A stretch of DNA of 64,000 bases from assembly GCA_951230915.1 (NCBI GenBank), contig OX579640.1, positions 10,622,981 to 10,686,980 of the forward strand, written 5' to 3'. Shown in pieces: positions 1 to 47,612 of this stretch. Made by a program: the position numbers and the translations under genes. Source of the DNA: Antitrichia curtipendula. Taxonomy: Eukaryota > Streptophyta > Bryopsida > Hypnales > Leucodontaceae. The notes under the pieces are model-generated. The model had not been told where the DNA came from. It searched no databases and saw only the letters and a program-made list of their open reading frames with translations. Within the stretch, counting starts at the first letter, position 1, and each line of letters starts with the position of its first letter.

Positions 1-745
1 CTGCATTATATCTGCGGGTGGAGTAATTCTCACAAATCTGAAAATGAAACAGTTAATTGCCGAGAAGGTTCACAGAACAGGCAGCCCAGCTCCAACCCAA
101 TTTCAACACATTGGACTGAACGCCTGCCAAAGCCGGACTGCCTGCGCACAGGGCCAACCAGCACGCGGCCTTTGGGTGCAAAGTTCGACGAGAATCCCCA
201 ACCCACTTTGAAATTCCCTCGTTTCCATGCCCTTTTTCGCCAGTCTTCCCCAAATCATGGAAACTGCCCCGCGTTGTGAGAAAAACACAACTTTAGCACA
301 AGTCCCTCTTCAGTTGCCCACATGCCCAGTCAAGAGACCACGTTTCTTCACCACGAGATGCCAATCTCGTCCACCTACAAATACAGACCTTCGTGATCCC
401 CATTCCTCATCTCGATCACTGGAACATTAGCAACTGGTGCAGCAGCTTCCATCAACTTCGAGCCTGCACTACGAATATCTGCAACCACATTTGCTCAAAT
501 ACAGTTGCAAACACAATTAGTTGTTCGATCGATTGTATACGAATTCCATTCGTCTAAATCGAAATTCTTTGTCACTTTGTTGAAAACCGCAGCCTGGACG
601 TTGAACGCTTGGGGGAATACTAAGTCCGTTGAATTACGAAGCTTGACTGTGTGTAGAGTTGATTGAATTCGATTTGGGAGCAGCTAGCTAGCTAGATCCG
701 CGATTGATTGCTGAGATCACCTGGGAACCCGAGCCGATATACACA
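1..745 (+). promoter_or_regulatory. Upstream region and 5' leader of PAL copy 1
   Basis: No gene is seen here. At 371-380 the sequence CCACCTACAA resembles the AC/P-box MYB elements known from phenylpropanoid gene promoters, and the overlapping TACAAATAC (377-385) is a weak TATA candidate. If transcription starts near 410, the leader is about 335 nt long. It contains no ATG before the one at 746, which supports that start. Promoter elements are read by eye only. Confidence 0.4.
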
Positions 746-2935
746 ATGGCAGCTGTGGAATTCGACTTCATGGCGTCGTCCCAGAGCTTCATGAATGCGG
801 GATGCGAGCCCGCAGTGAAGAAACCGACGACATCCCCCAGCTTCTGCAAGAATGCTCCCCAAACAGAGGTTTCCCGAGCAGATCCGCTCAACTGGGCGAA
901 GACGGCCGCGAAGATGCAAGGGAATCATCTGGACGAGATCAAGCAGATGGTGGTGACCTACTTCGACTCCACGGAAGTGGCGATTGAGGGCGTCAATCTC
1001 ACGGTGGGACAGGTCACGGCCATTGCACGCCGGCCCGACGTGGCGGTGGTGCTGGACGCGGCCAACGCCAAGGCCAGAGTGGACGAGTCCTCCAACTGGG
1101 TGTTGACGAAGATCATGAACGGCGGGGACATCTACGGAGTGACCACGGGATTTGGCGCCACCTCCCATCGTCGCACGCAGCAAGGTGTGGAGCTGCAGCG
1201 CGAGCTCATCCGCTTTTTGAATGCGGGGGTGGTGGTGAAGGGGCACTCATTGCCTGCGGAGACCACGCGCGCGGCCATGTTGGTGCGCACCAACACCTTG
1301 ATGCAGGGCTACTCCGGGATCCGTTGGGAGATTTTGGAGGCCATGGAGAAGTTGCTCAATGTGCATGTCACGCCCAAGCTGCCGTTGCGTGGGACGGTCA
1401 CCGCTTCCGGGGATTTGGTGCCCTTGTCTTACATTGCGGGGCTACTCACGGGCCGACCCAACTCGCGAGCTTGCACTCTCGATGGCCGGGAAGTTTCGGC
1501 ATTGGAAGGGTTGCGGATGGCGGGCGTGGAGAAGCCATTTGAATTGCAGCCTAAGGAGGGGTTGGCACTGGTCAACGGGACCGCCGTGGGGTCGGCATTG
1601 GCCTCCACGGTGTGCTTTGACGCCAACGTGTTGGCATTGCTTGCGGAAGTGTTATCCGCCTTGTTTTGTGAAGTGATGCAAGGGAAGCCGGAATTTGCCG
1701 ATCCCTTGACACACAAGTTGAAGCATCACCCGGGGCAAATGGAGGCTGCAGCGGTGATGGAGTGGTTGTTGGACGGGAGCGACTTCATGAAAGCTGCGGC
1801 CAAGCTCAACGAGACCGATCCCTTGAAGAAGCCCAAGCAAGATCGATACGCTTTACGCACTTCACCTCAGTGGTTGGGTCCCCAGATCGAGGTGATCCGC
1901 AGTGCCACGCACGCCATCGAGCGCGAGATCAACTCCGTGAACGACAACCCCATCATTGACGCCGCACGCGGGATTGCCCTGCACGGGGGGAACTTCCAGG
2001 GCACCCCCATCGGCGTGTCCATGGACAACATGCGCCTGGCGGTGGCAGCCATCGGCAAGCTCATGTTTGCCCAGTTCTCCGAGCTGGTGAACGACTACTA
2101 CAACAACGGCCTCCCTTCCAACTTGAGCGGGGGACCCAACCCGAGCTTGGACTACGGCATGAAGGGTGCCGAGATTGCCATGGCGTCGTACCTCTCCGAG
2201 CTCAACTACCTCGCCAACCCCGTCACCACCCACGTCCAGAGCGCGGAGCAGCACAACCAGGACGTGAACTCGCTGGGCTTGGTGTCCGCGCGCAAGACGG
2301 AGGAGGCCGTGGAGATTCTCAAGCTCATGAGCTCGACCTTCTTGGTGGGGTTGTGCCAAGCCATCGACCTCCGCCATGTGGAGGAGACCATGCAGTCCGC
2401 CGTGAAGCAAGTGGTGTTGCAGGCGGCCAAGAAGACGCTGTTCATGGGCCAGGACGGCGCCCTCCTGCCGTCGCGCTTCTGCGAGAAGGACCTCCTGCTG
2501 GTGGTGGAGCGTCAGCCCGTGTTCTCGTACATCGACGACGCGTCCTCCGACACGTACCCGTTGATGGAGAAGCTGCGCGGCGTGCTGGTCAGCCACGCCC
2601 TCAAGGACGCCTCCCGCTCCGTGTTTGAGCAGATCCCTGTGTTCGAGGCCCAAGTGCAAGAGCGGCTGCGCGTGGTGGTGCCCTTGGTGCGGGAAGCTTA
2701 TGACCAGAAGGGCCTTTCGGCGGTGCCCAACAGGATCGAGGCTTGCAGGACGTACCCGCTGTACCAATTCGTGAGGTCGGAGCTCGGGACGCAGTTGCTG
2801 TCCGGCTTGCGAACGGTGTCTCCCGGGACTGAAATTCAGAAAGTGTTCGAGGCGATGTCGGAGGGGAAGCTGATTCGACCTCTGTTGCAGTGCGTGCAAG
2901 GATGGACTGGCGCTCCTGGTCCATTCCCCTTGTAA
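746..2935 (+). CDS. PAL: Phenylalanine ammonia-lyase, copy 1
   Basis: Deaminates L-phenylalanine to trans-cinnamate and ammonia, the first step of phenylpropanoid metabolism, as a cytosolic homotetramer. It is one uninterrupted exon of 729 residues, close to the usual plant length of about 710-720. The MIO cofactor triad Ala-Ser-Gly is at residues 220-222 ([11 protein letters not shown]), the catalytic Tyr at 130 in [12 protein letters not shown], and the selectivity residue Phe at 157 (IRFLNAG), where bifunctional PAL/TAL enzymes carry His. The frame stays open upstream to 704, but that codon is TTG; the first ATG is at 746 in the good context CACAATGGC, and no ATG occurs in the leader. Many seed-plant PAL genes have one intron; this has none, as in several bryophyte genes. 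CHS lies 22 kb downstream in the same unit. Confidence 0.96.
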
Positions 2936-5163: not shown

Positions 5164-8100
5164 TCATGGTGAGGATAAAGAATCCTCCAGATCATGAAGT
5201 GCCCTTACGACGCTGCTTTGGGTTGCCCTAGAATACCCACACTCGCTGTGGTATCCGTCTCTGTTTCCACAGGGCGTGGAAGCATCGACGGAGGAAATGG
5301 AAGACCCCAGATCCACTTTTTCGATAACAGGGTGCAGGTTTCGATGAACATCGAGAGTGTTTGCAGAACTGGAGCTCCAGTGGTTGGCAAAATTGTGCTG
5401 CTTGACCAGCAGCAGTGACGCGTGCATGTGGAAGTGCTTCTTGGACACCAAAAAATCTCCCAAGGGTCCGAGGCCATGATCCTCCACAGCAAGGAAGGCA
5501 CAGGATTGAATGACAGGGCTGGCGGGATGCGAGTGCAACCCAGTGATGATCAAGTCATTGGGCTGCGCAGAATGGAACACGTCAAGGACGGAGTCCTCGA
5601 GGTTCTGCGTCTCAATTACTTTGAGTGTCAACTTTCTACAACTGATTTTATGCTCGCCGTTGCGTTTTAGGTCATCATCGTCTTCTACTTCTTCTGCAGC
5701 TTCCAAGATCGGAGCTAGAGCTTGCAAATCCAAGTGTCTCTCACTTTGCGACTCGATTATGTCCATGGAGATGCGAGCTTCTTCCGTGGACTGTGTTTTG
5801 CTTGCATCCATCTGCCCATTCGGTAAGTAGTCTCCACTGTTTTGCTTGCGTGGGACGGATCTCTGGGTGCCGATCCATGGCGCCTTGAAGAAACTCAAAA
5901 CTTCACAAGCGAACCATGTGAAACCGGTCCAGACTCGTGTAGCAACTGATTGAGTTTGCGAGTGCGACGTGAACAGGTGGCTTGAAATGTTTCGAATGTT
6001 GCCCAGGTGTTGGTTCCCCAGACCTTCGATCACGAACTGGATCACCGTGAGGCTGATACTGCCATGTTGCAACATGCGGCGTGCCAGCATTAGGGCTTCC
6101 CGGTCATCCGAGCCTCCGAAGAATAAGACGTAAATTTGTTGTGAGCAATTGGTCGAGGTGGTATCCAAGCCATTGTCAAGAAGTAGTCCAACTGAGCAGG
6201 GAGGGTTTTGCAACACCTTCATGTTCACTTCCTTCAATCCCGACATGACTGTCTCAAAGCTTCCGTCGTAACGTTGGCGCATGTGAAAGGGGAGCAACAG
6301 GAAATTCACACGGTTGGCGCATGAGGTGTTGCAGATGTCGATGTGCATGTTGTGGAAAGCACTGACGGCGACGGCGGTTTTCACTCTCACTCGGCTCAGC
6401 TGGGAGTAGGTCTGGAATGCTACTTCCACTCCGTCCAACTCTGAACTGCCCTGAAAGCACAAATCAGGTGGATTTTGTTATTGCAAAGAAAATCAAGCTC
6501 GAAAGCACCAACCTATCTTTTCCATGGTGTCCATTGCTATCTTTTATGACGATCTTAACACATTCCATGAGTGCACCTAATTTACTCTTCATCTGACAGC
6601 AAACACAATACTGTCCAGGATATGATTTAGACTCAATCACCATGTCTGAGAATAGTCTGCAACAACATGCTACTTCCTCTCAAGTGTCAATCCAGGAGCT
6701 ACTGTGAGGGAGCACTTGAATTGAGTGATGTCAGGGGCTTCCTTTTCCCAGACTCTGCAACTCAAGATGTGAGAGGTTTGAAAGAAGGAAGACTTCTGAG
6801 GATCGGAGCACGTTTTGAATCTCAGGGTTTTTCTAAACATTTACTGAGTAGGTCATATATGGAATTTCTTTTGTTCAATCTTAGGGTTTGGGGTTTAGGG
6901 TCTATATGAGATGCTCTTCCCTGATTCTTCTGAGATAAGTTTTCTCACCATCTATTTTCCCCAATAGGACTAATCGATTTAGTCATTTTAGAACCATGAA
7001 TCCTTCGCCTTTGGGGTGGGTGGGTTGTAGATTCTAATTGCTTTCTTGTGCAGCCATTGACGATGGCTTTCTAATTGAATTCAGACTACTGTTTTCTGCA
7101 GATATTGATTAGGACGCTGTTGCTACTCTTGTGAATTGAGGAGGAGGTTTACGGATGGTGCAATACATCACCTCTCGCTTGGAAAACGACGAGGACATCC
7201 GGATAGACGATAGTCGTTTCGAACTTTCGATCAGGTGAAGCACATACGCTCTCAGTGACTTGAAGTCTTTCCCTCTTGTGATTTCAATCATGTTTCTCAT
7301 GGAAGGGATGTTCCATGACCCAACAGGACAAAGCAGCATACGTAGTTCATCCTTATCATCCCCAGCGTCGATGCTGCGTCTCACGTAAGGTGGAATGTCA
7401 CGAGCTGGTGAATACATCCACATTACGACTGGCGTTGTTATGAAGGTGGTCACGAGGGCCATGATCACCAATATGGCAAATATTTCTTCATCTATGACCT
7501 GCAGGTAAAATTGGGCAATACTGAAGGTTGGTCAACACAAAAAACTTGGTAATAGAGTTTTATGACCTACTTTTTTCTTAGTCGTGGTGACTCTGAAGAT
7601 GTAGGAAACGTGTTAAAGTCTGACTGAGAGGACGAAGCAAGAGCTCTAACTTACCCCTTTTGAAAGACCGATGTTCAGGACTATGAGTTCCACCAGACCT
7701 TTGGTGTTCATGAGAAAGCCCAGGGCCAAAGCCTTGCGATTCTCCACACCCCAAAGCTTGGCCACAATAAATGTCCCCAGCACTTTTCCTATGCATGCTG
7801 TTGCTAGCACTATGATGAGAATCAACACTGCACCAGAAACGTAAGTTGCATTATTCAGATTGTCTTTGTTTGCCATTCATTTGATAATTGTTTATATAAT
7901 GTGAGACTAGCATTTCGGGGTAAGTTTTTGCCGTGAGATTCGCTTGAGAATTCTTTCTACCTCAAAGCATAGAGCTCATAACCGGTCTCACTGTTAGCTA
8001 GTGAAGATCCTCAACGTTCTTGTGATTCTTGTTGTTCTAACAAAATGGTTAATAAGAAAGAAAGGTCTCATACGTGCAGTTCCATTGTTCATTGCAGACA

Positions 8101-9338
8101 GGTGCGTCTTCAGTCCAGAAGATGCGAAGTAGAGGGGCAAGAAGAGGATGCTCACGTAGTCTTCAACCTTCTCAATCAGTATTGCTGCACAGAAAGAAAT
8201 CAATCCTTTAAATTTACTGTAAGTTGAGTTTGAACAGCACATTCGTTGCACTTTCTGTTGACTGATGAAGATGTACACCTATTCCAAGTTTATGATATCT
8301 GAAGCCAGCACCAAACAGAGCTCTTAAAATTTGTGTCATTGACACGAACTCCTAGAGCTGTTTATATCGTGATTGTAATGTAGAGGGGAAGGCCAATCTA
8401 AGTACCTGCGAATCGGCCGTCCTTAGGGATGATGAGCCCGCAGATGAAGGCTCCAAAAATGACATGAATACCAATTAAATCAGTGAGAAACGCCGCACCA
8501 AGAACAAGCAAAAGAGTCATTGCCACAACAGGCTCCGGAGGAAGCTCCCTGTAATGGGCCAGTGCATACGTAATCGGTGAAACGACCAAAAACATGAGGG
8601 CAAGAAAGGCTATGCCGAGGAGTGACACCCACAGTGCCACCAGTGGATTTGATTTTGAATTCGTTACAGCTACTGCCAGAGCCAGAAGGACCCATGCAAC
8701 CACGTCGTTTATTGCGGCTGCCGACATCGCCATTTGACCAATCTGCGAATGAAGAGACTGTTGGGTAAGCTCGTTCAACCTTCACTGATTTTTTTTATCA
8801 CAGTTCACGGATGTCAAGTGATTAAGTCCAACAGGATTGAGATTTCATGGTTTAAAGTGAACAATTTGATTCAAATCCATAAAAAATTAAAAAAATAAAG
8901 ATGAAGCCAAACTTATATTACCAGAACCAATGAAGAACAATGCAGGTGCGGGTCAAAATAACAATAGGAATGGACAACACACATTCTTTTTATGACGTAC
9001 TCTAAAGTGCCACGAGAGATAAGCTCGAAGCCTCTTGATCCTTCAGGGGTTAAGCTCAAGCTCACAACATTCTCATGCTGACGACATTCTCGTGCAGCTT
9101 ACACTACCGAATTCAAGAGATTTCCTCAGTGTTGAGAAGTTTGCGCTCTGTCAGAATGCGGGCGAGAACGGGGAAAGCAGTAATCAAGAGCGCCACGCCA
9201 AGGAACAATGTGAAGGTTCCAAAGTTTTGACCCAACTCCGGCAGAAGAACTTTGCATATGATATATGATGCTACTGTCCCAAGTCCAAACGGGAGGATCA
9301 TGCCTGCTGCTGCCATCCATACTGTCATTACTCCCGAC
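5164..9338 (-). CDS. CHX-type cation/H+ antiporter, 5' end missing, copy 1
   Basis: Monovalent cation/proton antiporter of the plant CHX family (CPA2), normally an endomembrane or plasma-membrane protein. Exon model on the minus strand: 9338-9125, 8742-8406, 8184-8074, 7827-7655, 7498-7172, 6450-5164, about 815 residues. Hallmarks are [25 protein letters not shown] with the conserved Asn-Asp pair, [28 protein letters not shown] and [18 protein letters not shown], followed by a long cytosolic C-terminal domain in one 428-residue exon. Five introns keep the frame; four have GT-AG ends. The first intron shown (9124-8743) would need a GA donor: the aligned exon end is ACTGAG followed by GAAATC, and a stop follows. 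The first membrane helices (about 100 residues) were not found upstream. It may be a 5'-truncated pseudogene or may use an unrecognised first exon. Confidence 0.75.
6881..6901 (+). repeat. Short telomere-like repeat in a CHX intron, copy 1
   Basis: Two to three imperfect units of the plant telomere repeat TTTAGGG lie in the 721-bp intron 7171-6451. They could be a telo-box or chance. The rest of that intron shows nothing recognisable. The same bases occur at 41825-41845. Confidence 0.4.
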
Positions 9339-9952: not shown

Positions 9953-10117
9953 ATGGCCGTGATGGACGATGGGGGATCATCGAAGTGGAGACCTCCGTCG
10001 ATCGAAGCGTCTATGAAAGTAGCTCGATCGATCGTTGCGATCATGACAACTTCTGGAGATCATTGTCGACTGTCGACGAGTGCAACCTTGGCAAGAATTT
10101 CCGCTTCATGCATTTGA
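9953..10117 (+). CDS. SSKWRPP-repeat micropeptide gene A, copy 1
   Basis: Short frame of 54 residues starting MAVMDDGGSSKWRPPS, with one copy of the motif GDGGSSKWRPPS that also occurs in genes B and C. No signal peptide or membrane segment is visible. The first eight codons and the bases before the ATG closely match gene C at 21066. After the motif, A carries four extra bases (TCGATCGA against TCGA in C). This shifts the frame, so A runs 36 codons past the point where C ends in SKRQ-stop; without those bases A would end in SKRL-stop. The long tail is therefore probably recent and not conserved. Function unknown. The homology to C continues for several hundred bases downstream. Confidence 0.55.
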   Translation: MAVMDDGGSSKWRPPSIEASMKVARSIVAIMTTSGDHCRLSTSATLARISASCI

Positions 10118-10607
10118 AAAACCCTGGCCAATGAATTCCAGGGCCAATACTTTGCTTTCTTGCAATAAGTTATTCAAACAAAGAACGCATTGCAATTGAA
10201 TGCCAGAGCTAGCGGCCTCCTGCGACCGGCAGAATGTAGTTCCTGATTCTTCACACAATGTGACAATTAACGATTCGAAAATAGTACCACAGCTTTGAAG
10301 TTGCTCAGATACTTGTTGACACATTATACTGGAGACTACGTACATTACATGATCAAAAGACTTTTAGACTTCACTGACTTGAATGTGCGTTTCAATCGAT
10401 TCTTGTCAGATCTGTCACTGTTAGGCTCACTTGTGAGCTGCATCTCAGTGTGGTCAATCGATCTGGACCAAATAAGATCTGTCTTCCATCATTGTCACGA
10501 GTTACTACCCGTAGACCTACTGGGAAATGAGTACCGATCATGAAGATCTATTTGGACAAACTGAAGTGTTACTTCGAACCTGTAATGACTCTGCCGTAAG
10601 CCCTGTC
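10118..10607 (+). other. Region downstream of gene A, paralogous to gene C trailer
   Basis: This stretch aligns with 21177-21740 over several blocks, for example CACAGCTTTGAAGTTGCTCA against CACGGCTTTGAAGCTGCTCA and CTCAGTGTGGTCAATC against CTGAGTGTGATCAATC. No reading frame is shared between the two, so this is most likely a long 3' untranslated region or a flank copied with the gene. Confidence 0.5.
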
Positions 10608-11539
10608 TTAACCCCTAAAGGACCATTGTCCCCTCGGGGGACAAATGGGTTTTCGGGCAGGTACCTACGAGCTGAAATTTTCTCCTGATTTTTTGAAACT
10701 TTTTTTGGAGGTAGAAAATCTGATTAGCTTTATGGGAATATAATTTTTTTCACAATCGGTGCCCGGGAAAAAAAGTTATGCCCAAATAAGCTCAAAACAG
10801 GGGTCGAGGGGCAGCAAAAAAAATTTGCAATTTTTTTTTTTTTTTTTTTCTAATTTTTTTTTCTTATAGATTATATTTTTGTCTATCTGAAAAGCTTTGA
10901 TTCATTTCATTTGGATTTTTTATGAGAATGTTATGGACAAGCTTGTTTTTCGGGCATTTAGAGCATCTTCCTGAAAAAATAACTTGTAGGATTCATTTCT
11001 GAATGTAATTTTTATAGTTTTTCAAAAAAAGAAGTTCCACAAGGTTTAGTTTTTTTGCTAGAACAATCTCACCATTGGAATTAGTGATTTTTAATTCCAT
11101 ATAAAAGATATTAATATTTTAGATTTTCTTTCTATCTTGTACCTACTTCTACTTAACAATTTCTTTAATAATGAAAATTAAGTTTTTTTGGATTTTCTTT
11201 TTTCCCCTAGACTCTCAACTCAATTCTCCACTATAAAGATTAAAAGCTCAAAACTCTGTAGTGCAAAATATTTAAGTTAAAAATGTTCAAAGTCATAAAA
11301 TCTAGTCCCGCAATGTGCTGAAAAACTTGTTTTTTTCACTTTAAACGCAGATATCTTGCAATCTGTGCGGTCAAAAATTCTGAAATTTTTTCCATACATT
11401 TTCATACTAGTTAGGTATAAGATCCTGCGGTTAGGTGTGAAAAAAAAAACAATTTCCAATTTCTTTTACTCTTTGCTATAGAAATGGCAGTTTTGAATGT
11501 TTTTTGGCAGAAAAATGGCCTTGGTCCTTTAGGGGTTAA
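10608..11539. mobile_element. TTAA-flanked piggyBac-like non-autonomous element, copy 1
   Basis: The ends are perfect 18-bp inverted repeats, TTAACCCCTAAAGGACCA at 10608-10625 and its reverse complement at 11522-11539. Taking TTAA as the target duplication leaves a 924-bp element starting CCCCTAAAGG. TTAA targets and ends beginning with CCC are features of piggyBac transposons. The interior is AT-rich with long T-runs and has no transposase frame. A diverged relative lies at 28713-29921. Family assignment rests on the ends alone. Confidence 0.65.
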
Positions 11540-12467
11540 AGTCAACGCTTGGCATTCTTACATTCCACTTGATCATTTGATAAAGAATTAGCTGCCTTCA
11601 ATTATGATCGGATCAGAAGAAGCAACGAGTGATTTTCACAAATCTTATCCTCCATGCAGACAATCGACTTAGGACTGAGGATAGAAGTGTCTAATCCAAA
11701 TGGAAAAACTGCTTGGCGAACTGCTTAGTGATATATATTAAAACTGTGCGTTTCATATTCCCAACATATGTCGTGACATTCGAGAGCATTGCACTGGAAG
11801 AACTAGGACGGGTACAGATGTGATCGGAATTTCAGGCGGGCGGAAAAAAAACGTACCCATTTCTTGAAATTTCGCCATGATACAGAATGGGTGGATCAAC
11901 TTTTGAGTTGGAATTCGTTTGTTGTTGATTTATCACTCTGAAAGTCCGGACTTATCAATGAATGTTTTCACGTCTAGTTCTGACTTCAGAGAGCGCAAAT
12001 GCAAAATGGCTGCGGACGCACATGGCATGACAATCTCGCCGCTTGCTTGACACACGTACAAGATAGACACGTTTGATCGGAACGGGGTGCTTAATTAAGA
12101 TAAATCGGTCTTTGAACACTTTGAGGTCTTTTATACATTGCCAACCAGGAATTGGCTCAGACCTAAGAATGGCAGCTACTCTACGTCACGCCCCCTGCTC
12201 TACAGAAACGGGGTCCCAACGAATGATCTACGATTCCGAATGTCGGAACGAGCGGGTCAACTAATTTGACACCAATGTTTTTTCGGCAGATCTGTCGAAA
12301 GGATGAAGCCTCGGAGAAATATTCTCTCTCTCGATTCTGAACCATCGCCTCCGCATTTCTAGCTTGGGCAACTGGTCACTCGGGGTGACTACCATTGCTT
12401 GGTGTTTGTATTGATTGCAGTATGTACAAAATTGTTGAATTTCAGCTGGCGCTTGATCTCCACGTGC
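11540..12467. other. Spacer, no gene seen
   Basis: Moderate GC, several short chance frames, no recognised gene or repeat. It includes the presumed 3' flank of gene B. Confidence 0.45.
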
Positions 12468-12668
12468 TCAAGTTGGATTATTTGAGAACCCCTTTCCGGG
12501 TCTCCACTTGGAGGATCCTCCGTCCCCTTCACAGTCGTCGTCGCAGCTGCAGCAGTGCGAGGGTGGCCTCCATCTAGAGGATCCGCCATCGCCTTCGCAG
12601 TCTTCGTAGTCCCCAGAGTAGGATGACGGGTTCCATTTCGAACCACCTCCATCACCTTCCGCACCCAT
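12468..12668 (-). CDS. SSKWRPP-repeat micropeptide gene B, copy 1
   Basis: Frame of 66 residues from an ATG at 12668-12666. It carries three diverged copies of the motif: EGDGGGSKWNPSS, EGDGGSSRWRPPS and EGDGGSSKWRPGK. The spacers are rich in Asp and Cys (GDYEDC and HCCSCDDDC). Serine, arginine, proline and glycine codons differ between the repeats while the residues hold, which suggests selection on the peptide. A good donor (GAA|GTAAGT) and acceptor (TGTGCCAG|CA) just upstream define a 71-bp leader intron, and a TATA-like CATATAAGG lies at 13004-12996. The frame upstream of the ATG stays open but has no Met. No signal peptide is visible. Function unknown. Confidence 0.6.
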   Translation of the reverse strand: MGAEGDGGGSKWNPSSYSGDYEDCEGDGGSSRWRPPSHCCSCDDDCEGDGGSSKWRPGKGFSNNPT

Positions 12669-12683
12669 GATTGCAATGCCTTG

Positions 12684-12754
12684 CTGGCACAGGAAGTACC
12701 CCAAGTGCTGAACTTTGCTGTCAAGTCTTACCACGAATTTATGTACTCACTTAC
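12684..12754 (-). other. Predicted 5' leader intron of gene B, copy 1
   Basis: Reads GTAAGTGAG at the 5' end and TTCCTGTGCCAG at the 3' end on the minus strand, 71 bp, near the lower size limit for plant introns. It sits 15 bp before the proposed ATG. Prediction from splice consensus only. Confidence 0.4.
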
Positions 12755-12995
12755 TTCGATAGAACCTGGGATGATCTCTGAACCTTGGGTCAAAACTTGC
12801 ACTGCCTTTTCGCAAGAATTAATACTCCAGGCGTGACTCAAGCTTCTCCCTGTGGAATCTACGAACCAGTGACAGGAGATTGATCTTTGAACTGGTTGGT
12901 ACCTCGAATCGAATGCGAGGTCGAGGGTTCGACTGGTGAGTATATTGAAAGAGCTGTAATGAGTTGTGAATGAGAGAGTGGAGGCCACTGCGGGT

Positions 12996-13004
12996 CCTTA
13001 TATG
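12996..13004 (-). promoter_or_regulatory. TATA-like box of gene B, copy 1
   Basis: CATATAAGG on the minus strand. A start of transcription about 30 bp downstream would give a leader of about 300 nt containing the predicted 71-bp intron and no ATG before 12668. Confidence 0.4.
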
Positions 13005-13689
13005 GGATTGGGAGCTCGCGTTCCACTACGCAGTCAGTCTCGTGCCGTGGGCTGAAGTGTTGACGGCATGGTCAAAGTTGCTGACCCACGTCGGTATGAC
13101 CAGCAACGCGTCCTTCGTTACAGCGTTCCGTTATGTTGTTGACGGGGAATGAGAGGATGAATGAGAAAAGAGCGACCTTGGATGAGAAAATGAGAGCAAC
13201 CTCACTTTGGATGAGAACGAGCGAACGAACCGGTGCCTTTGTCAAAGCTCCGGCCTCTGTATGCAGCAATTCCAAGAGGCGGCAGTGCGGCACCGCGGCA
13301 ACATTGATGAACGCACGAAATGAGGACCAGAGGGTGCGAACAAAGAGAGACAGAAATAGAAAAGGACATGGGAGCCACGTGCCAGGTTTTCAGTATAGAA
13401 ATAGAGGAGCTCCGTTGCTTGTTGGGGTCTTGCATTATTTTTTCCCAAACTCCCAATTAATCCTTAAACAGCGAGGAGGATGTTTGGCATCCGATGGATG
13501 ACAGAAAATCAACTTAGTAGGACGGAAGTGCAACTATTCATTCCCGGAATTTTGTTGTGAAAAGGGAAGGTCTTTTATAGTTCTTTGACTTCCAATGAGT
13601 GCTTTTGCTATTTCTTAAACCAACAACTCACATGGTAATGAAAAGGGATGATTTCCAAGGTCACCCCTTTGTCCTTTAAGGATTAACCC
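13005..13689. other. Upstream region of gene B, no gene seen
   Basis: Mixed-composition spacer with several short chance frames. It contains two TTGAC/GTCAA W-box-like cores near 13060-13080, of unknown relevance. Its right end (about 13668-13690) holds GTCCTTTAAGGATTAACCCTT, which looks like the terminus of the TTAA-element family. Confidence 0.4.
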
Positions 13690-16600
13690 TTGAATCTCCA
13701 AGGCACCAAACTCTATTGTCGACAACACTTTAAAGCTAATTAAAATTTTAACCAATTTATTATTTTTAGTAGTTTGTATATTTTTGAAATTATTTGTTGA
13801 ATTTTAGTTTTAGCATTAAAGTTTGATTTTAATAATGAATGATTATGATTTTTCTACTCCAGATTTTGTGCAAGAATGTCTATGGAAAATCTTTTTTATT
13901 TTTTGGGTTGAAGGCTCTTGAAAATAAACCTTAAAATATACTAACTTTTTTTGGAGAAATATTACATTTGAAATTTATTTGAACAAATCAATAGAGCACT
14001 GGAGTAGTGAAATAGTGCACAGTCACTAAGGATCTCTGATTAAACTAAATTTGGCTTTTACATTAATGGTCTATAGTCTACATTTCTAGCTTTTACATTA
14101 GTGGTCCCAGGTCGACATGGTGTGTCACCTTAAAGGCTTTTGAAATCACTGTGCCTACTTGGCCAATTGAGCATGCCAAAGCCCTTTTGCGATGAGTTTT
14201 TGGCTGTCTCACAGTGGCATCTCTTGAATAAGTTCTAAAAACTTTAGATTTGTTTGTACATACTTGAGATATACGGAATTTTTAAAGAAGTAGTGAAAAA
14301 TTCATATCAAATACAAATAAGCTTAATACATCTAAAAAATTATCGCATGCATACATCATATTCTAGAGTAGCTTGGTGCGAACTAAATTTATCATTCTCA
14401 ATTAGAAGTCAATAGCCCATGGTTTTAAGTCCACAATTCAAATTTAAAAAAATTAATCAATTCTAGGAGTTTTTCATCTTTTCAAATTGGAGTAGAAATT
14501 AGATTGTACAAGTTTAGGATTCATTAGTTCAATTTGAATTATTAAAAACTCCTTTATGACTTAAATTCAAATAAAAAAACAAAGAGGTAAAGGTTGCCAA
14601 AATATAGTAATGGAAAAGGCATTTTTGGTGATCCATGACTAATAAATCTTTTTTTCTAAATTATGTACTTCTTTGATGAGGGGCTTTTTACAGCCAATAG
14701 CCCCATATACATTTAAAGAATTGTCTACAATAAAATTGGATGGTCAAAACTTTGTGTGAATATTTATATAAAATGTTGTGACTTACGAGTTTAAATTTGA
14801 TGTTAAAATTTGTATACAATTTACAAGGATTTTTGTAAGTTATTGTCAAACTCATATAATCTACTTATTTACAAATTTGATATTCTTTTATATTAATTTA
14901 TTGCAATATAGTACATAACAATATTATACTGTAATAGGATTCTTGTAAAAAGTAGAAGAGAAGCCGTAGCGGTCTCATCGTCAATCAAAATTCCCTCAGC
15001 ATCCACCATTTCACAATCTGGCAACAATTGTGAGGACTCATTAGTACTCCTTGTTGTTTTTTGCAATTGATCAAATATAGTAGTCAAATTTTGCTTCAAA
15101 AAATGCATTGGAGTTTTGGGGTTCTTTTGCAATTTAGTCGCTTTTTTATGATTCTTAGTTATTGTGGAATCCTTATCCAACTAAAAATCCCTTTTTGTTT
15201 CCTTGTTCATTCCTTCTACCAAAACTACAAATATTGAAGATTCTACAACCTTCTTTTTGTTAGTAGTGAGGTTTTTTAACTTCTTTGACGGTAGTGCAAG
15301 TAGGGGAGAGGTCACCTTCAACAATGGTACATAGTACACTAGAATGGGGCCACATAGCAGTAGTCTCCAATCAATCATCTAGAGATCTCTAGATGTATGA
15401 AAATCATGGGATATGCACCTTGGAAATGTGGCGCTGGCGAGTCTCTTCATCACTCCTCTTAGAGTAGGTGTTGAAGAAGAACAATGACCAATTTGGAAAT
15501 TATCCTTTTAGCATAATAAATTCGTTCCAAAAGAGGCTTGTCAATAGAAATTTCATATCAATAAAGAAATGATCTTTGGTTTCTAGCTCCAATTAGAGAT
15601 CTATTTTCAACTCAATTGCTCAAAACATACATCATGCTTGTTACACACACTTAATAAATTAAAAATTCATATTACTTCCAATTGGTGAATACATCACCCA
15701 TTCACCGTTGTAACTTATACAAAATTGTTTCCCCGGGGAGATCACTTAGAGGGTCCATTAGGAACTACGTGCGTTAAGATTTTAGACCCCCTATCTTATG
15801 TTCTAAAATTTAAATAAAAGGAAAAGAAAAAAATATGAGTAGATTTTCCTATTTTGAAAGTTTATGTTTTGAATTATTGATAATTTTTTTGTTAATTATA
15901 ATTAGTTACTAATTTTTGAAATAAAAAGATACACTGCAAAGCTGAAAATAACTTTCACACCCCTATTTTATATAAGAAAAAATTGTATTAAAAATGCACA
16001 AAAAATTCTCAAAAATAAATCTCTACTGAAAGTTCCTATTCCTTGAATATTGATGCAGTGGTCATCTAAATGCATTCTCTATAAATATTTGAGTTGAAAA
16101 ACATGCCATTTTAGTTCATTTTTCAATGTTCTCTAGAAATCATTTAATATGGTATTTAAATTGGGAGTTTTGGACAATAGACACTTATAGCCTTTATTAA
16201 ACAATACTCAAAATTATAGGTCGAAACCAAAGTTCATTAAAAAGTAAATAGGGGGATAAAAATCACTTGAACACACGTGGTTAGTTATAGATACACTAAG
16301 TGATCTCCCCGAGATTGTTTCACAATTCAAACTCTTTATGAAATTTCCTCCTAATCTAATTCTATAAATTCTTTCATCGTCACATTTTACTCTCCAATTT
16401 GATTAAAACTTCTCTTCCTTTCCACTAGCATTCCCACACACTCTTCACATTCCTTCACACATAATTTCCAACTTGACACACACACATACAACAAATAAAG
16501 AAAACACAACCAATTTTGGGCTGGGACTTATATTGGACATTTTCTCAACAATGGGCAAAAGAAAAATGTAGAAGAACCACCCTTGATAGGATATAAGCCG

Positions 16601-19600
16601 ACGGTTACCAAAACAAGGAAGACGACTAACCTCCCACTACTACCTAATTGGGATTAACTCACAGGCTCTCTTACAAAACATTCATCCTATCAAGTTTGAT
16701 TAGATTGACATATTGCCGATAAGGATTGTAAATCTACCTAATTACCTCCACGCCCTTTTTGACTCATCCAATTAGACAAACACTTAGCACATTCCAACTA
16801 GACAATTGACTTAACTACATTCCACCTTCACTCCATTAGATCTCAATCAAAAGACCTAGGTGGACAATCCAAAAGGCACCAATTTGGATCAAAACAACAC
16901 AACAAAATGATCTATTTGGACTGAAACTTAACCAACAATCTATCAAAATACTATAAAACATCCACAAATTCAATCCAAAATTGCAAAATTAACAATCCAA
17001 TTAGGATATCTACATAGCCCTACATCTGATTGTTTGTGTCCCCGCAAACATCTATTTAATCTTTTTCACTCCTCGCTTAATTGGAACAACTTGCAACTAG
17101 GTATTCTCCTCCTCAAACTTAAGCTTTTTCACCAATTTGAAGCGTTCTTCCCAAATTGCCTCTTGATTGGAATAAAATGCCTTCACCAGTCCACGACTAG
17201 TTTTCGACTCTCGGTAGGTTCTTAAATGTACATTGTATACAAAAAATCTTTATTAAAAAGGATAATTCTTCAAATTCTATCTAGAGATCTTTCAATCCAA
17301 CTATGTAAAGTTCTCCACACTCAGGGATTATTTGAGAGACTTATACAATTTCAGTCCATTCTAAGTAAACAAAGCATTCCTTCGAATGGTTACGGGTGCA
17401 AAATTTGAACCATGTGAAATGCCCAAATCACTTGATTTCGGGAGATCTCTAGATATAAAGGAAATGGAAGACCTTCAGATGCATAGGGAGATTTTTAGAA
17501 TATATAAAATTCCAAATTTAGTAATTAGAATTTAGATGATATTTAAGTCTAATTAAATTATGAATTCCTTTTAAATGTAAGCATAGATGAAATCATTAGA
17601 GAAAATATGGACTCTTTGTAAGGTTGCCAAAAAGTGGTAAAAGGGATCCCAAAATTACATTTATTTTGTCCTTGCAAAAAAATTTCCCCTGATTTGCTTA
17701 GAAGTACTTGTAGTACCAACAAAAAGTGCCTTTAATAGAGTGCAATTGGGATGGATTCCAATAAAACCATGTTTAATTATTTTTTATTTGAAGAAATACT
17801 TCTAAGCTATGCTACAAGTAAAGCTTATAGACTCATCTTCGTTTGTGTCCATGACACTAGATTAAACAACCATAAGATCTAATTTAAACAAAAGCAGATG
17901 TCATAAATACCTTCCTATGACAAGAGTAGATTCAATGGAGTACAAAACTTGCTTATATAGTTGTTCCTCCAAATATTCACATAAGACATAGATAAGTTTC
18001 ATCAAAGTTTTGGTACTTCTAGTAGGCTCAATAGGGATCTTGAAATAGCTTGGCATGTCAAATCCATACAACCCTCTCAAGTCCCAAAGTCCATATTTTT
18101 TTCTAATGTATGTATTTAAAAGTCATTTACACAAGACAACATACTAACATTTATAGGATAAAGAATGGAAAAACTTTCTAAAAGCAATACTAGTTATTTC
18201 CATGCTTTTATGGTTGAAATAACAAAACATGGAAAGTGAAAATTTTGCCATTTGTGGTAGATGCTTCACTCAAGCTATGGATAAGCAAGGCATCATTGTC
18301 CAAGATCATTGTTCTCATTCTCACCAGAAGGAAATATTTCAAATCTAAGAGGGATAGAATGATCCTCATTGTGATGGAGGATTGAAATTGGACGAGAGTA
18401 TAATTGGATTATTTTGACCTACCCTTTAATCTTAAAGGGGTTACTTTGTTCTTCCCTATGTTAAGATATTCTAATTGATATGAAGGTTAATGAAGGTTTG
18501 TTGTTCTTGTCTTACATATATCTTATGCTATGAAATCTTGTACTAGAAGTGAAATCTTAATGTATGTTGATGTCAAAAAGATCGGAGTTGCTTTTCTATT
18601 GAACATAGATTGATTGTCCGGGTGATGATGATAGGGTTTAAAGAACGCATATGGAAGTAGAGCAAGATTGCAGCTGTGGTGGTTTCTCAGATTCATATCT
18701 TACAACACCCAGATTCTTTTTTATTTAATTTTCATTTTCTCAACACAATCTAGTCTCTCTTCTATGGTCTTATTTACTCTAAATGTACACTTAATATTTG
18801 TGGAATAGCACATTCTTTAGATGGCTTTCATATTGTCTCAATCTACAGACTCTAAGACAGTAGAGAACTTCCAAGTGTATATTAAATTGGAAATACATGT
18901 TAGGGAGTGTATTAAAGCTCAACTGAACTCATAAGGTAGTGCAATTAGTTAGAGAGGGTTCAATATAATGGCAAGTACACTAGACATTTGAAATGATTTA
19001 TTGATCAACTCAAGAATGTTAGTCGTGATTCATCCAAACCTTGATAATATCACAACCAAAATATACTTGACTACATGTCGTGATGTACATAACATTGTGA
19101 TAATCAATGGTGTAGCTTGTAAGAGTAGCAATGTAATTAGGGAGGAGGTTTAGAGCCTTCTGTATGCAAGCACTTGAATGTCAAATTGTCAACATTTGTG
19201 TTATACTCGTCAAATTTAGTGTCATATTTTTTCAAGATAGAAAAAAAACTGTGCCAATTATGGTTGATACTGAGGGCACCTAGAAAAGAATAGCTATCAA
19301 AGGATGGATATAATTAAGTCAAAGCTTGCTTAATATGAAAGTATTCATAATGAATTAAACACAATTATCCAATTATGCTGAAAATTAGTTTTGTCTTTTT
19401 TTCAACATTGTGACTAGTTTAGTTTTTCAGTACTTTATGATTTTTTTATAAAATTTTCAATCTTTTTTTGTTCATACAAGAAGATTGTCTATCATTTAAA
19501 TTCTTTTCAAGCTAAAATTTATTTGCCTAAAATTAAAGTTATTGATCAATATTCTTCCTCTTATTTGGTTCTTTTAGGCACTAACATGTTGCGTATATAG

Positions 19601-20075
19601 CCCTTCCAATGGAATTCCATATATCCTAGCATATAAGAATACAAAGGAAACCTTGCCTCAATTCAACCATCAATTTTCTCATGATCTTTTATGGTCCTTG
19701 TTAGTTATTTATATATACACATAGGACACATTCAATAATTTGAAGATTCTTGCACAGAAGTGAGCTAGCTTTTTCAAAATACATTACGTGCTCTACATAG
19801 TAAGAACGAGACAATGTAATTCAAGAAACTTAACTGACCTAGATCACAAATGGAGAAATGTGTCACTTGGTGTCAATTGTAAAATACGCTAACTCCTCTA
19901 ATCTTATAACAATAATAACACAACCTCACAAATAGAACCTTAGTGGAGAAAGTTATGGAGTGGCATCCACCTTCACAAATAATACCTCATACATTGTGAG
20001 AAGTTTAATCTCTGCTTCCTTAATGTACTTTATAACTGTCAAAATACTACCTCGCTCATTTTAAATAGAAGATTC
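13690..20075. other. AT-rich repeat island, copy 1
   Basis: A stretch of 6.4 kb of very AT-rich DNA with no intact gene. It contains a hAT-like element (15732-16313) and a degenerate minus-strand frame at 15378-14893, broken by one stop, whose Lys-rich product I do not recognise. The block at 16.5-17.4 kb is pyrimidine-rich and may be old retroelement sequence, but I see no reverse transcriptase or integrase motif. Six of the 14 copy differences fall here (14420, 15289, 15325, 17393, 18985, 19662). Confidence 0.5.
15732..16313. mobile_element. hAT-like non-autonomous element, copy 1
   Basis: The 582-bp element has inverted ends CCCGGGGAGATCACTTAG and, reading inward from the right, CTCGGGGAGATCACTTAG (17 of 18 identical). 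It is flanked by a perfect 8-bp direct repeat ATTGTTTC at 15724-15731 and 16314-16321. An 8-bp target duplication is typical of hAT transposons. The interior is AT-rich without a transposase frame. Confidence 0.7.
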
Positions 20076-20666
20076 ATGACTTCATACAGTAAAACTTACA
20101 AAACTCACCCTCATTTTGTACTGACAAATTTCGCACATCATTTACAATGTTTCGTAAGTGACCTCCGCGGACCCATTCTATTATTCAATTGGGGAGTGCT
20201 CGTGCGCACGTCTTTCAAAGCCACGAGCATGGTCTCCCGTTCTCCGACAGTCGAAATCACGCTGACGACCGTGATGTCGGCAACGGGACCCTACCAAGGA
20301 AGCTTTCAATTCGTCATCAAGCAAAAGTACAGAATACGCACACATTTCCTCACAAATCAATCATGTGTTTGTGACCCAATTGACCAACGATTTGTGCGTA
20401 ACTGTCGAATTGACCAAAAAAAGTTAATTAGTGACTCGTCGAATCGAATCATCCTTGCAAGTTCGAACCCCCGCCCAGGAGGCCAGGAGGCCAGGAGTCC
20501 TCCTCTGACTTCCAACTTTGGCGGAGAGTTAAGTTTCCCTGTGACCAACTCGAGCAAACTAACGGCTTCGACTTCAGAGGACACATCGCAGGTTTCGCGT
20601 ACGTTGCTGGTTGCCCTCGCCGGCGCAGCGCCGCTCAACACGAATATCTTTTGGCAAGCCACTTGA
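20076..20666 (+). CDS. Hypothetical 196-residue frame, copy 1
   Basis: A true ATG opens a 196-residue frame at the border where AT-rich DNA gives way to GC-richer DNA. No domain, signal peptide or membrane segment is recognised, and part of the frame runs through a short GAGGCCAG tandem repeat (about 20478-20497). The product is Ser/Thr-rich. It could be chance. It ends about 145 bp before the TATA box of gene C. Confidence 0.2.
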   Translation: MTSYSKTYKTHPHFVLTNFAHHLQCFVSDLRGPILLFNWGVLVRTSFKATSMVSRSPTVEITLTTVMSATGPYQGSFQFVIKQKYRIRTHFLTNQSCVCDPIDQRFVRNCRIDQKKLISDSSNRIILASSNPRPGGQEARSPPLTSNFGGELSFPVTNSSKLTASTSEDTSQVSRTLLVALAGAAPLNTNIFWQAT

Positions 20667-21065
20667 CTGTCAGATCATTATCCACTTCCTTGGAAGGTGA
20701 TTTCATTGAAGCAGCGTTGAAATGGACCAAACCTTGGGTGTCAAGATCAGGGGTACGCTGACAAAGTCCGCCTAATTTGAACAGAGATCGCTGCGGCAGG
20801 AATCAGAACGTATAAAAGACCATCGCACTCGCATTCTATCACAACAATAACATCTGATTGATCGACCAACGCAAACTCAAGCTCGACGCAGAATGCAGTG
20901 ATACATTGAACTACCGAACGTGTACCCGGAGCAACAATTTGACACTCTGAAGCCAGCTTCAGATCCATTCAATACTGCGAACTGATAGCTCTCTCTGTCT
21001 GATCCGATCCAAGCTTGCAGACCGGCCAGAGATCTGAATATTCAGTCCGGGAGCTAATTGCCACC
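20667..21065 (+). promoter_or_regulatory. Promoter and leader of micropeptide gene C, copy 1
   Basis: A clear TATA box, TATAAAAG at 20811-20818, is followed by an A/C-rich stretch where transcription should start near 20843. The leader would be about 220 nt. It contains one minimal upstream frame, ATG-CAG-TGA, at 20893-20901, which might affect translation. Confidence 0.55.
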
Positions 21066-21176
21066 ATGGCCGTGATGGGCGATGAGGGATCGTCCAAGTG
21101 GAGGCCTCCGTCCAAGTCTAGTCCCATGGGGGATGGCGGCTCCTCCAAGTGGAGACCTCCCTCGAAGCGTCAGTGA
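21066..21176 (+). CDS. SSKWRPP-repeat micropeptide gene C, copy 1
   Basis: Encodes only 36 residues: MAV, then two tandem repeats (MGDEGSSKWRPPSK and MGDGGSSKWRPPSK) joined by SSP, ending RQ. The start lies in GCCACCATGG, a near-ideal initiation context, and a TATA box stands 250 bp upstream. The two repeats differ at several third codon positions (TCGTCC against TCCTCC, AGG against AGA, CCG against CCC) but only once in the residues of the core motif. That points to selection on the peptide. No signal peptide or membrane segment is visible, so a cytosolic or nuclear role is more likely than secretion. The family is not known to me; related genes are at 9953 (plus) and 12468 (minus). Confidence 0.65.
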   Translation: MAVMGDEGSSKWRPPSKSSPMGDGGSSKWRPPSKRQ

Positions 21177-24588: not shown

Positions 24589-26038
24589 CTATTGATTGGC
24601 AGCGGCCCGGAGCACCAGCACCTCGAGCGTGAGTCCCGGCCCGAAGCCGATGAAGAAGCCGAAGTCGCTGCCCTCCCCGAGCGTGGAAGACCCCATCTTC
24701 AACGATCTCTGACGAATCTGGTCCAACACGAACAACACCGACGAGCTCGACATGTTGCCGTACTCCAGCAGCACGTCGCGGCTGCCCTGCATCTTGTCCT
24801 TGGACAGTTGCAGCTTGGCCTCCACCTGGTCCAAAATAGCGGGGCCTCCGGGGTGCACGGCCCAGAACATCTTGTTCCACGCAGGGGAGCCCACGCACTT
24901 GCGCGCCTCCGTCAGAAACTTCTCGATGTTCTTCGAGATGAGCCCGGGAATGTCCTTCATCAAATGGAAGATGAGTCCTGCTTCCGTGAGATGGCCGTCA
25001 ATGGCGCCATCACTTTCGGGCAAGATGGTCTCCCCGGCCCAGTGGACCTCAAACAAAGCCTTCTCCACTTGCGGCTTGGGGTCCGACCCGACCACGTACA
25101 CTCCCGCGCCATCCCCGAAGAGCGCCGAGCCCACCAATCCGTCCAAGTGATTCTCGCTCGGGGCTCGATACGTCACGGCCGTCACTTCGCTGCACACGGC
25201 CAGCACGCGCGCGTTCTTGTTGTTCTCGGCCAAGTCCTTGGCCACGCGCAACACCGAGGCGCCGCCGAAGCAGCCGGTTTGGTACATCATGACGCGCTTC
25301 ACGGTGGGCTTGAGGCCCAGCAACTTGGCCAGCGCGTGGTCGGCGCCGGGCATGTTCACGCCGCTAGTGGTGGCAAACACGATGTGCGTGATGTCGGACT
25401 TGCGGCCACCCCACTCCTTGATGGCCTTCAGCGCGGCCTCCGCCGTGAGCTTGGGCACCTGCACCACCACGATGTCGTGGCGTGCGTTCAACGAGGGCTC
25501 CATGTACGTGCAGATTCCCGGGTTGGCCTTCAGCACCTCCTCCGTCAAGAACAAGTGTCGCTTCCGGATTCCGGACTTGTCGCCTGTGGAATGGGATGAT
25601 CACACATATCACGTCAATTTCACTGAGGGCACCATGAGTACAATGTGCAGCTTTCTTCGAATTCATTCCACTCACATCAAATTGGGTAGACTACGAATTG
25701 CAGCTTGCATCACAATCCAAATATCCCCCAATCGATCACCCACATTGAACTACTTAATGGGGTTCATTGGCTATTAAACCAGGCTGGGCGGAATGAGTAT
25801 TCATACAATCAACTGAAGGGAATTATTAATTAGATGGTCACTTACAGATGCGTTTGAACTTGGCCTTGAGCGCCTCCTTCTCGCTGCAATTGGTGATGTT
25901 GAAGAAGAAATCCGGGTAATCCGATTGCAGAAACTCCGTGGGAGGTACGGCAGTGCCGATGTCCAACACGCACGCCGGTCCATCCGCACGAGGCTGTCCC
26001 CTAGGGAGCGCAGAGCTCACCGCAGTCTGAGAAGCCAT
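24589..26038 (-). CDS. CHS: Chalcone synthase, copy 1
   Basis: Type III polyketide synthase condensing p-coumaroyl-CoA with three malonyl-CoA to naringenin chalcone, the first flavonoid step. Exons 26038-25846 and 25583-24589 give 395 residues, the family's usual length. The 262-bp GT-AG intron splits Cys65 after its first base, the conserved CHS intron position. The catalytic triad is Cys169 (QTGCFGG), His308 (AVHPGGP) and Asn341 (YGNMSS), with gatekeepers Phe220 (ALFGDG) and Phe270 (LIFHLM). All are offset by 5 from alfalfa CHS2 numbering. The family signature GFGPGLTLE is near the end. All key residues are present, so a true CHS is likely, though stilbene-type specificity cannot be excluded by eye. 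Both differences from copy 2 (25213, 26003) are silent. Confidence 0.95.
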
Positions 26039-27032
26039 TGCGACGAGTTCGCTCCTGCAGACCGAAAACTGGTAAGTGCGTGCTAGTCGGGCTCCAATTC
26101 TCCGGTCTGAAAGTTGACTTTTCTGTGATTCAGTAGACCCAATCCGAATTGAATGAGAGCTTTGTAACTTGGAATCGAATCCAAGGCCTCTGTTTGTCAC
26201 TAGAGAATTCTTCGAGTGTGACGTCCAGTAAGTACGTTGCTGGAGCGCTAGGGATTGCTGTTTGCTGTTGTGAGGATTGGATGTGTGGTTTCAGGCTCTT
26301 TGTAGTGCTATTGGAGAGCAACGCGGGGCGAGAGTCTGCGGCGTCCCGTGTTGAGGATCGGAAGAGCGTGGAATGCTGGGAAGTCTTGGTCACGAGTTCC
26401 GTGGAGAAAAGGGAAAGGAATGGTCCACCAAGGGAGAATGGATGAAGGAGGTCAGCGTGCGGTTATTACGGAGTAGAATATTAGAATGTCAACTCCGTTG
26501 AGTTCCTCGTTGAATGTCCCTTTGTTGTTGTTGACGTCCGATGTTTGAAATATCTCGGGTTGTTTTTTTCAACTTCTTTATTGGCTCTGTCCCGAGCCAG
26601 AGACGTTTACCCAACGATTAATTTCAAGTTTGGGAGACTCGGACTTCCTGAGGTAGAGCTACTTGATCCCTGTGCCTCTTATTTTTGTGAAATAGGTGTG
26701 TAGTGAAGTATAATGACCAATATGACCTCAAACTATTGGCTTTGAATGGTTCCTACGTTACAATTGACGCTTCAAAGTTGTAAAGTAATAAGCTTTTTAG
26801 TGATTGGTTTTGGGTCATTCTCAAGGCACTTCAACATGCACCGATTGAACACTTTCAAATTTCTTCCAATCTTGACTTGAAAATTCATTGAAAAGACAAA
26901 AATTCTCCAAGCTTTCAACTTCCTAGAAAGAACCCCATTCACTCTCCAAGAAGATGGAGCACCACATTACTTTCGTCCCACTAGAGTAGCTCGCTCCTAA
27001 TCGGGACAAAGCCTCGTTGTTTTATCCTCCTT
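26039..27032 (-). promoter_or_regulatory. Upstream region of CHS, copy 1
   Basis: No gene is seen. A TGACGTCC bZIP-type ACGT element lies near 26219, of the class known in CHS promoters. No clear TATA box was found. Beyond about 26500 the DNA becomes AT-rich spacer. Confidence 0.35.
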
Positions 27033-44896: not shown

Positions 44897-45061
44897 ATGG
44901 CCGTGATGGACGATGGGGGATCATCGAAGTGGAGACCTCCGTCGATCGAAGCGTCTATGAAAGTAGCTCGATCGATCGTTGCGATCATGACAACTTCTGG
45001 AGATCATTGTCGACTGTCGACGAGTGCAACCTTGGCAAGAATTTCCGCTTCATGCATTTGA
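44897..45061 (+). CDS. SSKWRPP-repeat micropeptide gene A, copy 2
   Basis: Identical 54-residue frame with one SSKWRPPS motif and the same four extra bases after it, so the frame extension relative to gene C predates the tandem duplication. Function unknown. Confidence 0.55.
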   Translation: MAVMDDGGSSKWRPPSIEASMKVARSIVAIMTTSGDHCRLSTSATLARISASCI

Positions 45062-47411: not shown

Positions 47412-47612
47412 TCAAGTTGGATTATTTGAGAACCCCTTTCCGGGTCTCCACTTGGAGGATCCTCCGTCCCCTTCACAGTCGTCGTCGCAGCTGCAGCAGT
47501 GCGAGGGTGGCCTCCATCTAGAGGATCCGCCATCGCCTTCGCAGTCTTCGTAGTCCCCAGAGTAGGATGACGGGTTCCATTTCGAACCACCTCCATCACC
47601 TTCCGCACCCAT
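47412..47612 (-). CDS. SSKWRPP-repeat micropeptide gene B, copy 2
   Basis: Identical 66-residue frame with three motif repeats and Cys/Asp-rich spacers. The predicted leader intron is 47628-47698 and the TATA-like box 47940-47948. Function unknown. Confidence 0.6.
   Translation of the reverse strand: MGAEGDGGGSKWNPSSYSGDYEDCEGDGGSSRWRPPSHCCSCDDDCEGDGGSSKWRPGKGFSNNPT

What the first reader, a model, noticed from the sequence alone, without database searches (positions are those of the whole stretch)
9953..21176. Unrecognised family of micropeptide genes built on a GDGGSSKWRPPS repeat
Three short genes per unit, on both strands (A 9953-10117 plus, B 12668-12468 minus, C 21066-21176 plus), together carry six copies of a motif close to [EM]-G-D-G-G-S-S-K-W-R-P-P-S. 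Seen directly: the residues are kept while codons vary (Ser-Ser as TCATCG, TCGTCC, TCCTCC, TCCTCT; Arg AGA/AGG; Pro CCT/CCC/CCA; Gly in all four forms). Gene C has a TATA box and a GCCACCATGG start. Inference: translated, selected micropeptides of 36-66 residues. No signal peptide is visible, so secretion is not supported. I know no family with this motif.
Basis: partly seen in the sequence, partly recalled or inferred. Interest (0 to 1): 0.87.

Follow-up and report, generated by a model that had tools for sequence, protein, structure and literature searches.

The report
Moss family of repeat-motif micropeptides
The window holds real members of an apparently undescribed family of tiny moss genes that encode one to four copies of a short peptide motif (about GDGGSSKWRPP), kept by selection and with relatives in peat moss, but what the peptides do is still unknown.

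Summary
In detail: A, B and C lie at the stated places with six motif copies; 200 simulated units gave none. I merged matches in the 400-Mb source genome into 42 loci on four contigs, some broken. The intact members read encode 19-77 residues with 1-4 motif units, and the first unit starts at residue 5 in 24 of 25.

Selection acts on protein: pooled pN/pS is 0.21 for C-type and 0.15 for B-type genes. C-type coding sequence is 90-99% identical while flanks fall to 48-92%. Gene A in the window is frameshifted just after its motif; its last 34 or so residues are former 3' sequence.

Relatives exist elsewhere: besides P0001, already in the query, 12 hits have E<=0.01, all on unnamed records. Two annotated Sphagnum 'hypothetical proteins' carry three related units. 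No Pfam or PDB match was found, and the motif strings searched are absent from the held paper library. Chalcone synthase accompanies only the window's cluster.

Most likely each motif is a short ligand for one conserved partner, presented by a leaderless disordered peptide. A danger-peptide precursor is the boldest live reading. Expression was not testable.

The parts
9953..10117 (+). Gene A, one motif (core 9965-10000); frameshifted after the motif, probably a decaying copy
12468..12668 (-). Gene B, three motifs (cores 12656-12621, 12593-12558, 12527-12492), acidic/Cys linkers, 66 aa
12996..13002 (-). TATA-like TATAAGG about 330 bases upstream of B
   Evidence: sequence read directly
20811..20817 (+). 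TATA box TATAAAA of gene C; in the alignment of 14 A/C-type genes, 10 rows have GTATAA here, L017 has GCATAA, and L009 and the two A rows have neither
21066..21176 (+). Gene C, two motifs (cores 21078-21113 and 21129-21164), 36 aa, GCCACCATGG start
44897..45061 (+). Gene A, second tandem unit
47412..47612 (-). Gene B, second tandem unit
56010..56120 (+). Gene C, second tandem unit
704..2935 (+). Neighbour: phenylalanine ammonia-lyase frame (PF00221), second copy at 35647-37875
5164..9300 (-). Neighbour: plant cation/H+ antiporter (CHX-type) pieces; Pfam matches on 5164-6462 and 8398-8778, upper end a guess
24589..26200 (-). Neighbour: chalcone synthase, large exon 24589-25554 (Pfam); a probable first exon within 25838-26200 rests on reading the ORF list

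Best explanation
These are real protein-coding genes of a moss micropeptide family. SHOWN by computation: they encode hydrophilic peptides with no room for a signal peptide, in which a core close to G-D-G-G-x-S-[KR]-W-x-P is repeated 1-4 times. Core residues are kept while linkers, charge, repeat number and C terminus change. INFERRED: the core is a short linear recognition element that binds one conserved partner inside the cell. Repeats give several binding sites per peptide, and the family works as a disordered multivalent ligand, decoy or inhibitor whose dose is set by tandem duplication. I put 'coding and selected' at about 0.95 and this deployment of the motif at about 0.4.
For: Pooled pN/pS 0.21 (C-type, 10 members, 45 pairs) and 0.15 (B-type, 6 members, 15 pairs). 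Seven C-type loci, 21 pairs: coding 90-99% identical with no gap except one codon at the end of L010, against 48-91% for 220 bases upstream and 50-92% for 500 bases downstream, with many gaps. L012 aligns with L013 over the coding region and otherwise only over one 100-base stretch. In 21 of the 23 database proteins (P0016 and P0023 not aligned) the invariant columns are D, G, G, S of the first unit. First unit starts at residue 5, counted from the first Met of the frame, in 24 of 25 own-genome members, though residues 2-4 vary. Charge at pH 7 runs from +6.5 (53-aa C-type) to -6.4 (B), so the motif, not bulk charge, is kept. AlphaFold2 on P0001, not on a window peptide, gives mean pLDDT 63.1 and pTM 0.17. 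B and P0012 share an N terminus (14/19).
Against: No partner, transcript or peptide is shown. D-type genes have pooled pN/pS 0.65 (4 members, 6 pairs), because their tails drift. dS among C-type copies is lower than flank divergence for many pairs, so gene conversion may help to homogenise them. Pairs are not independent. The 67-core codon table fixed D2, S6 and W8 in its search pattern and limited positions 1, 3, 4 and 7, so their constancy there is by construction; only the codon variety counts. Trp is not invariant in the Sphagnum-type proteins (Tyr, Ile).
Confidence: 0.4

Rival explanations
1. Leaderless danger-peptide (phytocytokine) precursors: the repeat peptide is stored in the cytosol, cut out by proteases on wounding, and sensed by a surface receptor, as with systemin or Pep peptides.
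For: [quoted passage not shown] PMC13157962, passages seen). Repeats of one peptide with free linkers, Lys/Arg beside many units, tandem clusters and apparent lineage restriction resemble such families.
Against: The first motif sits at a fixed place near the N terminus. B has acidic linkers and no dibasic site. The Lys/Arg inside the core would also be a cleavage site. No receptor tested.
Confidence: 0.3
2. Antimicrobial peptides: cationic Trp/Pro-rich repeats damage microbes.
For: The 53-aa C-type has 3 Trp and net charge about +6.5.
Against: B, with the same core, has net charge -6.4; no signal peptide by inspection.
Confidence: 0.08
3. Peptide made by an upstream ORF that controls a downstream main ORF, or a conserved DNA/RNA element rather than a peptide.
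For: Small frames with long 5' leaders. A short frame starting M[SY][EK]LER about 155 bases after the stop appears in 5 of 8 C-type loci.
Against: That short frame is not kept: its ATG is lost in L013 and L016a, small insertions or deletions shift it in L017 and L015a, and L010 and L011b lack it. No long downstream frame shows in 1 kb of unspliced sequence at 8 loci. No Rfam match at the gathering threshold. Changes are concentrated at synonymous sites.
Confidence: 0.03
4. Regulators of the phenylpropanoid genes (PAL, CHS) beside which they lie.
For: PAL, CHX-type and CHS genes share the 34,944-base unit.
Against: None of the 42 listed chalcone-synthase matches lies within the peptide clusters at C10:1.09-1.80 Mb, C9:11.81-11.86 Mb or C8:21.71-21.76 Mb, or at C3:41.92 Mb; the nearest is C9:11.38 Mb, about 0.4 Mb from the C9 trio. 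PAL was not mapped genome-wide.
Confidence: 0.04

Closest known systems
Sphagnum 'hypothetical proteins' CY35_07G103200 (S. magellanicum, P0017) and BDL97_07G095400 (S. fallax, P0014)
   Same: Three units in a row, in P0017 GDGGSSNYKPP, GDGKGSPWNPP and GDGGGSKIKPG; profile-profile probability 97.2, E 4e-11 for that single comparison
   Different: 121 and 128 aa, longer N terminus, Tyr or Ile in place of Trp in two units; database-wide profile E-values only 0.2 and 0.02. They were found with the same profile, so one search is not independent
Leaderless phytocytokine precursors (systemin, PROPEP, Zip1)
   Same: No signal peptide, short peptide as unit, lineage-restricted (PMC13157962, passages seen)
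   Different: No sequence match in the Pfam and PDB searches (whether these hold systemin or PEP was not checked); 1-4 repeats; motif near the N terminus; perception untested
SCOOP and other tandemly expanded plant peptide families
   Same: Many copies in tandem (recalled) and lineage restriction (SCOOPs confined to Brassicaceae, PMC13157962, passages)
   Different: The SCOOP12 precursor has a predicted signal peptide (PMC13157962, passages); these do not, and the motif differs

Membership tests
Leaderless phytocytokine precursor | No N-terminal signal peptide | tested here: met
   By inspection only: motif from residue 5 and hydrophilic throughout; no signal-peptide predictor was run
Leaderless phytocytokine precursor | Released peptide triggers a receptor-dependent response | not testable with these tools
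   needs experiment
Systemin / PEP families by sequence | Sequence match to a family profile or solved chain | tested here: inconclusive
   0 Pfam families for A, B, C at E<=10 and 0 PDB chains at E<=10 for the 53-aa C-type; not checked whether those libraries hold systemin or PEP
Sphagnum CY35_07G103200 family | Same ordered motif units | tested here: met
   weak by single sequence, and P0021, one of six proteins in the profile, lacks a clear third unit
Conserved-peptide uORF | Conserved main ORF downstream on the same transcript | tested here: not met
   8 loci, 1 kb; 9 loci; unspliced sequence only
Cationic antimicrobial peptide | Conserved positive charge | tested here: not met
   +6.5 (53-aa C-type) to -6.4 (B), five peptides computed

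The most novel reading that the evidence does not exclude
A moss-wide class of leaderless, repeat-encoded danger peptides: one precursor carries several copies of a GDGGxSKWxPP ligand, dose is set by tandem gene amplification, and a cognate moss receptor exists. It would be an analogue of systemin/Pep signalling in bryophytes that arose independently.
Probability: 0.22. Interest if true: 0.85.

Novelty: new variant of a known kind. Interest (0 to 1): 0.6.

Why it matters
Peptide families of this size are easy to miss, because gene finders tend to skip frames under 100 codons and these have no signal peptide to attract attention. Here an ultra-short motif has been kept, apparently across mosses, while nearly everything around it drifted, which points to a strict binding partner. 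The family gives moss biologists a clear, small test case for intracellular or danger-peptide signalling outside flowering plants.

Tried and rejected
Pfam for A, B, C and for P0003, P0004, P0017: none. PDB with the 53-aa C-type: none. Rfam on the window at gathering threshold: none. B alone in the protein collection: 1 candidate, none scored. Viral contigs: 4 pattern stretches, no relative. Prokaryote genomes: 25 pattern stretches, no relative. Plasmids with P0001: none. Motif strings KWRPPS, DGGSSKW, DGGGSKW, DGGSSNYKPP, DGGASKW, DGGSSRW, DGGDSKW in papers: 0. The two Sphagnum locus tags: 0 papers. Papers were seen only as search listings with abstract openings; only PMC13157962 was opened, for 12 passages. 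Co-function with chalcone synthase, uORF and antimicrobial readings were set low (see rivals). A short downstream frame that I first overlooked was checked and is not conserved. Resemblance of the C-type end PPSKR to systemin and IDA ends is recalled and was judged too short to count.
Full report
WHAT IS THERE. The window covers most of two units of a tandem array with a 34,944-base period; the 29,056 bases that can be compared are 99.95% identical. Genome hits show the same spacing once more upstream (C8:10598010, 10632954, 10667898). The unit also holds phenylalanine ammonia-lyase, pieces of a CHX-type cation/H+ antiporter and chalcone synthase. Chance is excluded for practical purposes: 6 observed against 0 in 200 simulated units, with the caution that the pattern was written after the fact.

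HOW BIG IS THE FAMILY. The source genome is a 400-Mb, 303-contig assembly. An exact DNA pattern gave 47 matches (45 forward, 2 reverse) and none for the backwards control. A search with P0001 gave 61 matches at E<=10. I merged them by hand into 42 places: 19 on C8, 19 on C10, 3 on C9, 1 on C3. One match that lacks the motif (C2:47402970) was left out, as were two weak new ones (C9:8115368, C4:14824574), which I did not read. The searches give lower bounds. Some places are broken or truncated: L009, L014 (the frame at 4117), L051, L056, the C10:1729610 place, and the A copies in L004, L007 and the window. Subtypes read: C (mostly three 17-residue units, ending KRQ; two units in the window), L012 (a diverged C-like gene), B (three or four units with acidic/Cys linkers, ending GKGF, RKGF or GKGFSNNPT), D (MAGAGDGGDSKWKPPKR plus a drifting tail), E (MDTAGDGGASKWRPP), A (one unit), and L061 with three units.

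WHY IT IS PROTEIN. In seven C-type loci, 21 pairs, the coding sequence is 90-99% identical while 220 bases upstream range from 48 to 91% and 500 bases downstream from 50 to 92%, with many gaps. NG86 counts give pooled pN/pS 0.21 for 10 C-type members, 0.15 for 6 B-type and 0.65 for 4 D-type. Left out of that count: duplicate loci (L003, L005, L006, L008, L016, L018, L052, L060, L064), broken ones (L009, L056), the one-unit A genes, E-type L051/L053 and L061. Pairs are not independent. In the four D-type genes the first 17 residues are the same apart from Ala or Thr at position 2, while the tails differ. L012 and L013 align over the coding region and otherwise only over one 100-base stretch elsewhere. 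In 67 cores from 22 sources, 45 of them distinct in DNA, kept residues use up to four codons (the search pattern fixed D2, S6 and W8 and limited positions 1, 3, 4 and 7).

A DOWNSTREAM FRAME. A frame of 32-39 codons that holds a M[SY][EK]LER start appears about 155 bases after the stop in 5 of 8 C-type loci. The alignment shows that its ATG is lost in L013 and L016a, that it is shifted in L017 and L015a, and that L010 and L011b lack it. So it is shared 3' sequence, not a kept gene, and the uORF reading stays low.

GRAMMAR. The first unit starts at residue 5, counted from the first Met of the frame, in 24 of 25 own-genome members; the script's own tally of 16 of 25 counts from the nearest Met, and eight A- and C-type members have a second Met at residue 4. 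Among 23 database proteins the unit starts five residues from an in-frame Met in 12 (10 from the listed start, P0001 and P0005 from an inner Met); the other 11, which include the six Sphagnum-type proteins, do not fit. Linkers, net charge (+6.5 in the 53-aa C-type, -6.4 in B), repeat number and C terminus all vary. AlphaFold2 on alignment A1, which models P0001 and not a window peptide, is low confidence (mean pLDDT 63.1, pTM 0.17, one helix at 45-55), as expected for a disordered peptide.

RELATIVES. P0001 came up at E 2.1e-6 with the 53-aa C-type query, 1 of 18 candidates. The profile search, whose query included P0001, listed 23 of 7,983 scored candidates at E<=10, 13 of them at E<=0.01, P0001 included; more candidates existed than were scored. 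The 12 others at E<=0.01 are on contigs of about 1-7 kb without an organism name. Two of the weaker hits are named: Sphagnum fallax BDL97_07G095400 (E 0.02) and S. magellanicum CY35_07G103200 (E 0.2). The profile of six Sphagnum-type proteins aligns with ours unit by unit, probability 97.2, and 27 of its 44 invariant residues lie at 50-83, where the first two units are. P0021, one of the six, lacks a clear third unit, and the proteins were found with the same Gly/Pro-rich profile, so this is support, not proof. L061 matches P0016 (27/37) and B matches P0012 at the N terminus (14/19), which suggests that subtypes predate the species. Prokaryote genomes, viral contigs and plasmids gave no relative.

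HOW IT MAY WORK. Shown: coding, selected, without room for a signal peptide, repeat-based. Inferred: the conserved core is a recognition peptide for one partner. I favour an intracellular multivalent ligand because the first unit is fixed near the N terminus, charge is free, and B has no dibasic cleavage site. A leaderless danger-peptide precursor remains close behind; such precursors are an accepted class (PMC13157962, passages only). The link to phenylpropanoid genes looks incidental: of 42 listed chalcone-synthase matches, those near peptide genes are all in the C8:10.2-10.7 Mb cluster, and the nearest elsewhere is about 0.4 Mb from the C9 trio.

VERDICT. A real, apparently undescribed family, known at most as unnamed hypothetical proteins. 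Novelty in print was checked only by motif strings and two locus tags in the held library and cannot exclude subscription papers.

Noticed in passing
window 1-64000: Tandem array of 34,944-base units, 99.95% identical where comparable, with PAL, CHX-type, CHS and the peptide genes; larger repeats of about 190 kb are suggested by spacings upstream on C8.
   Followed up: partly
window 7179-7853 and 22869-23547: A repeat of the CHX neighbourhood, about 97% identical, lies downstream of gene C.
   Followed up: no
L050, L059 downstream of the D-type gene: About 1 kb downstream, a second ATG frame opens (MAVMENLKK in L059, MAGCESVMEKLKK in L050; read from the DNA); it may be another small gene.
   Followed up: no
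window 12468-12668 and relatives: B-type linkers carry a shifting Cys/Asp cluster (HCCSCDDDC and variants) that could bind metal; it is not strictly conserved.
   Followed up: no
G000 contigs C8, C4, C2, C1, C3: Chalcone-synthase-like genes are numerous: 42 listed matches at E<=0.001, 20 of them at 90% identity or more.
   Followed up: no
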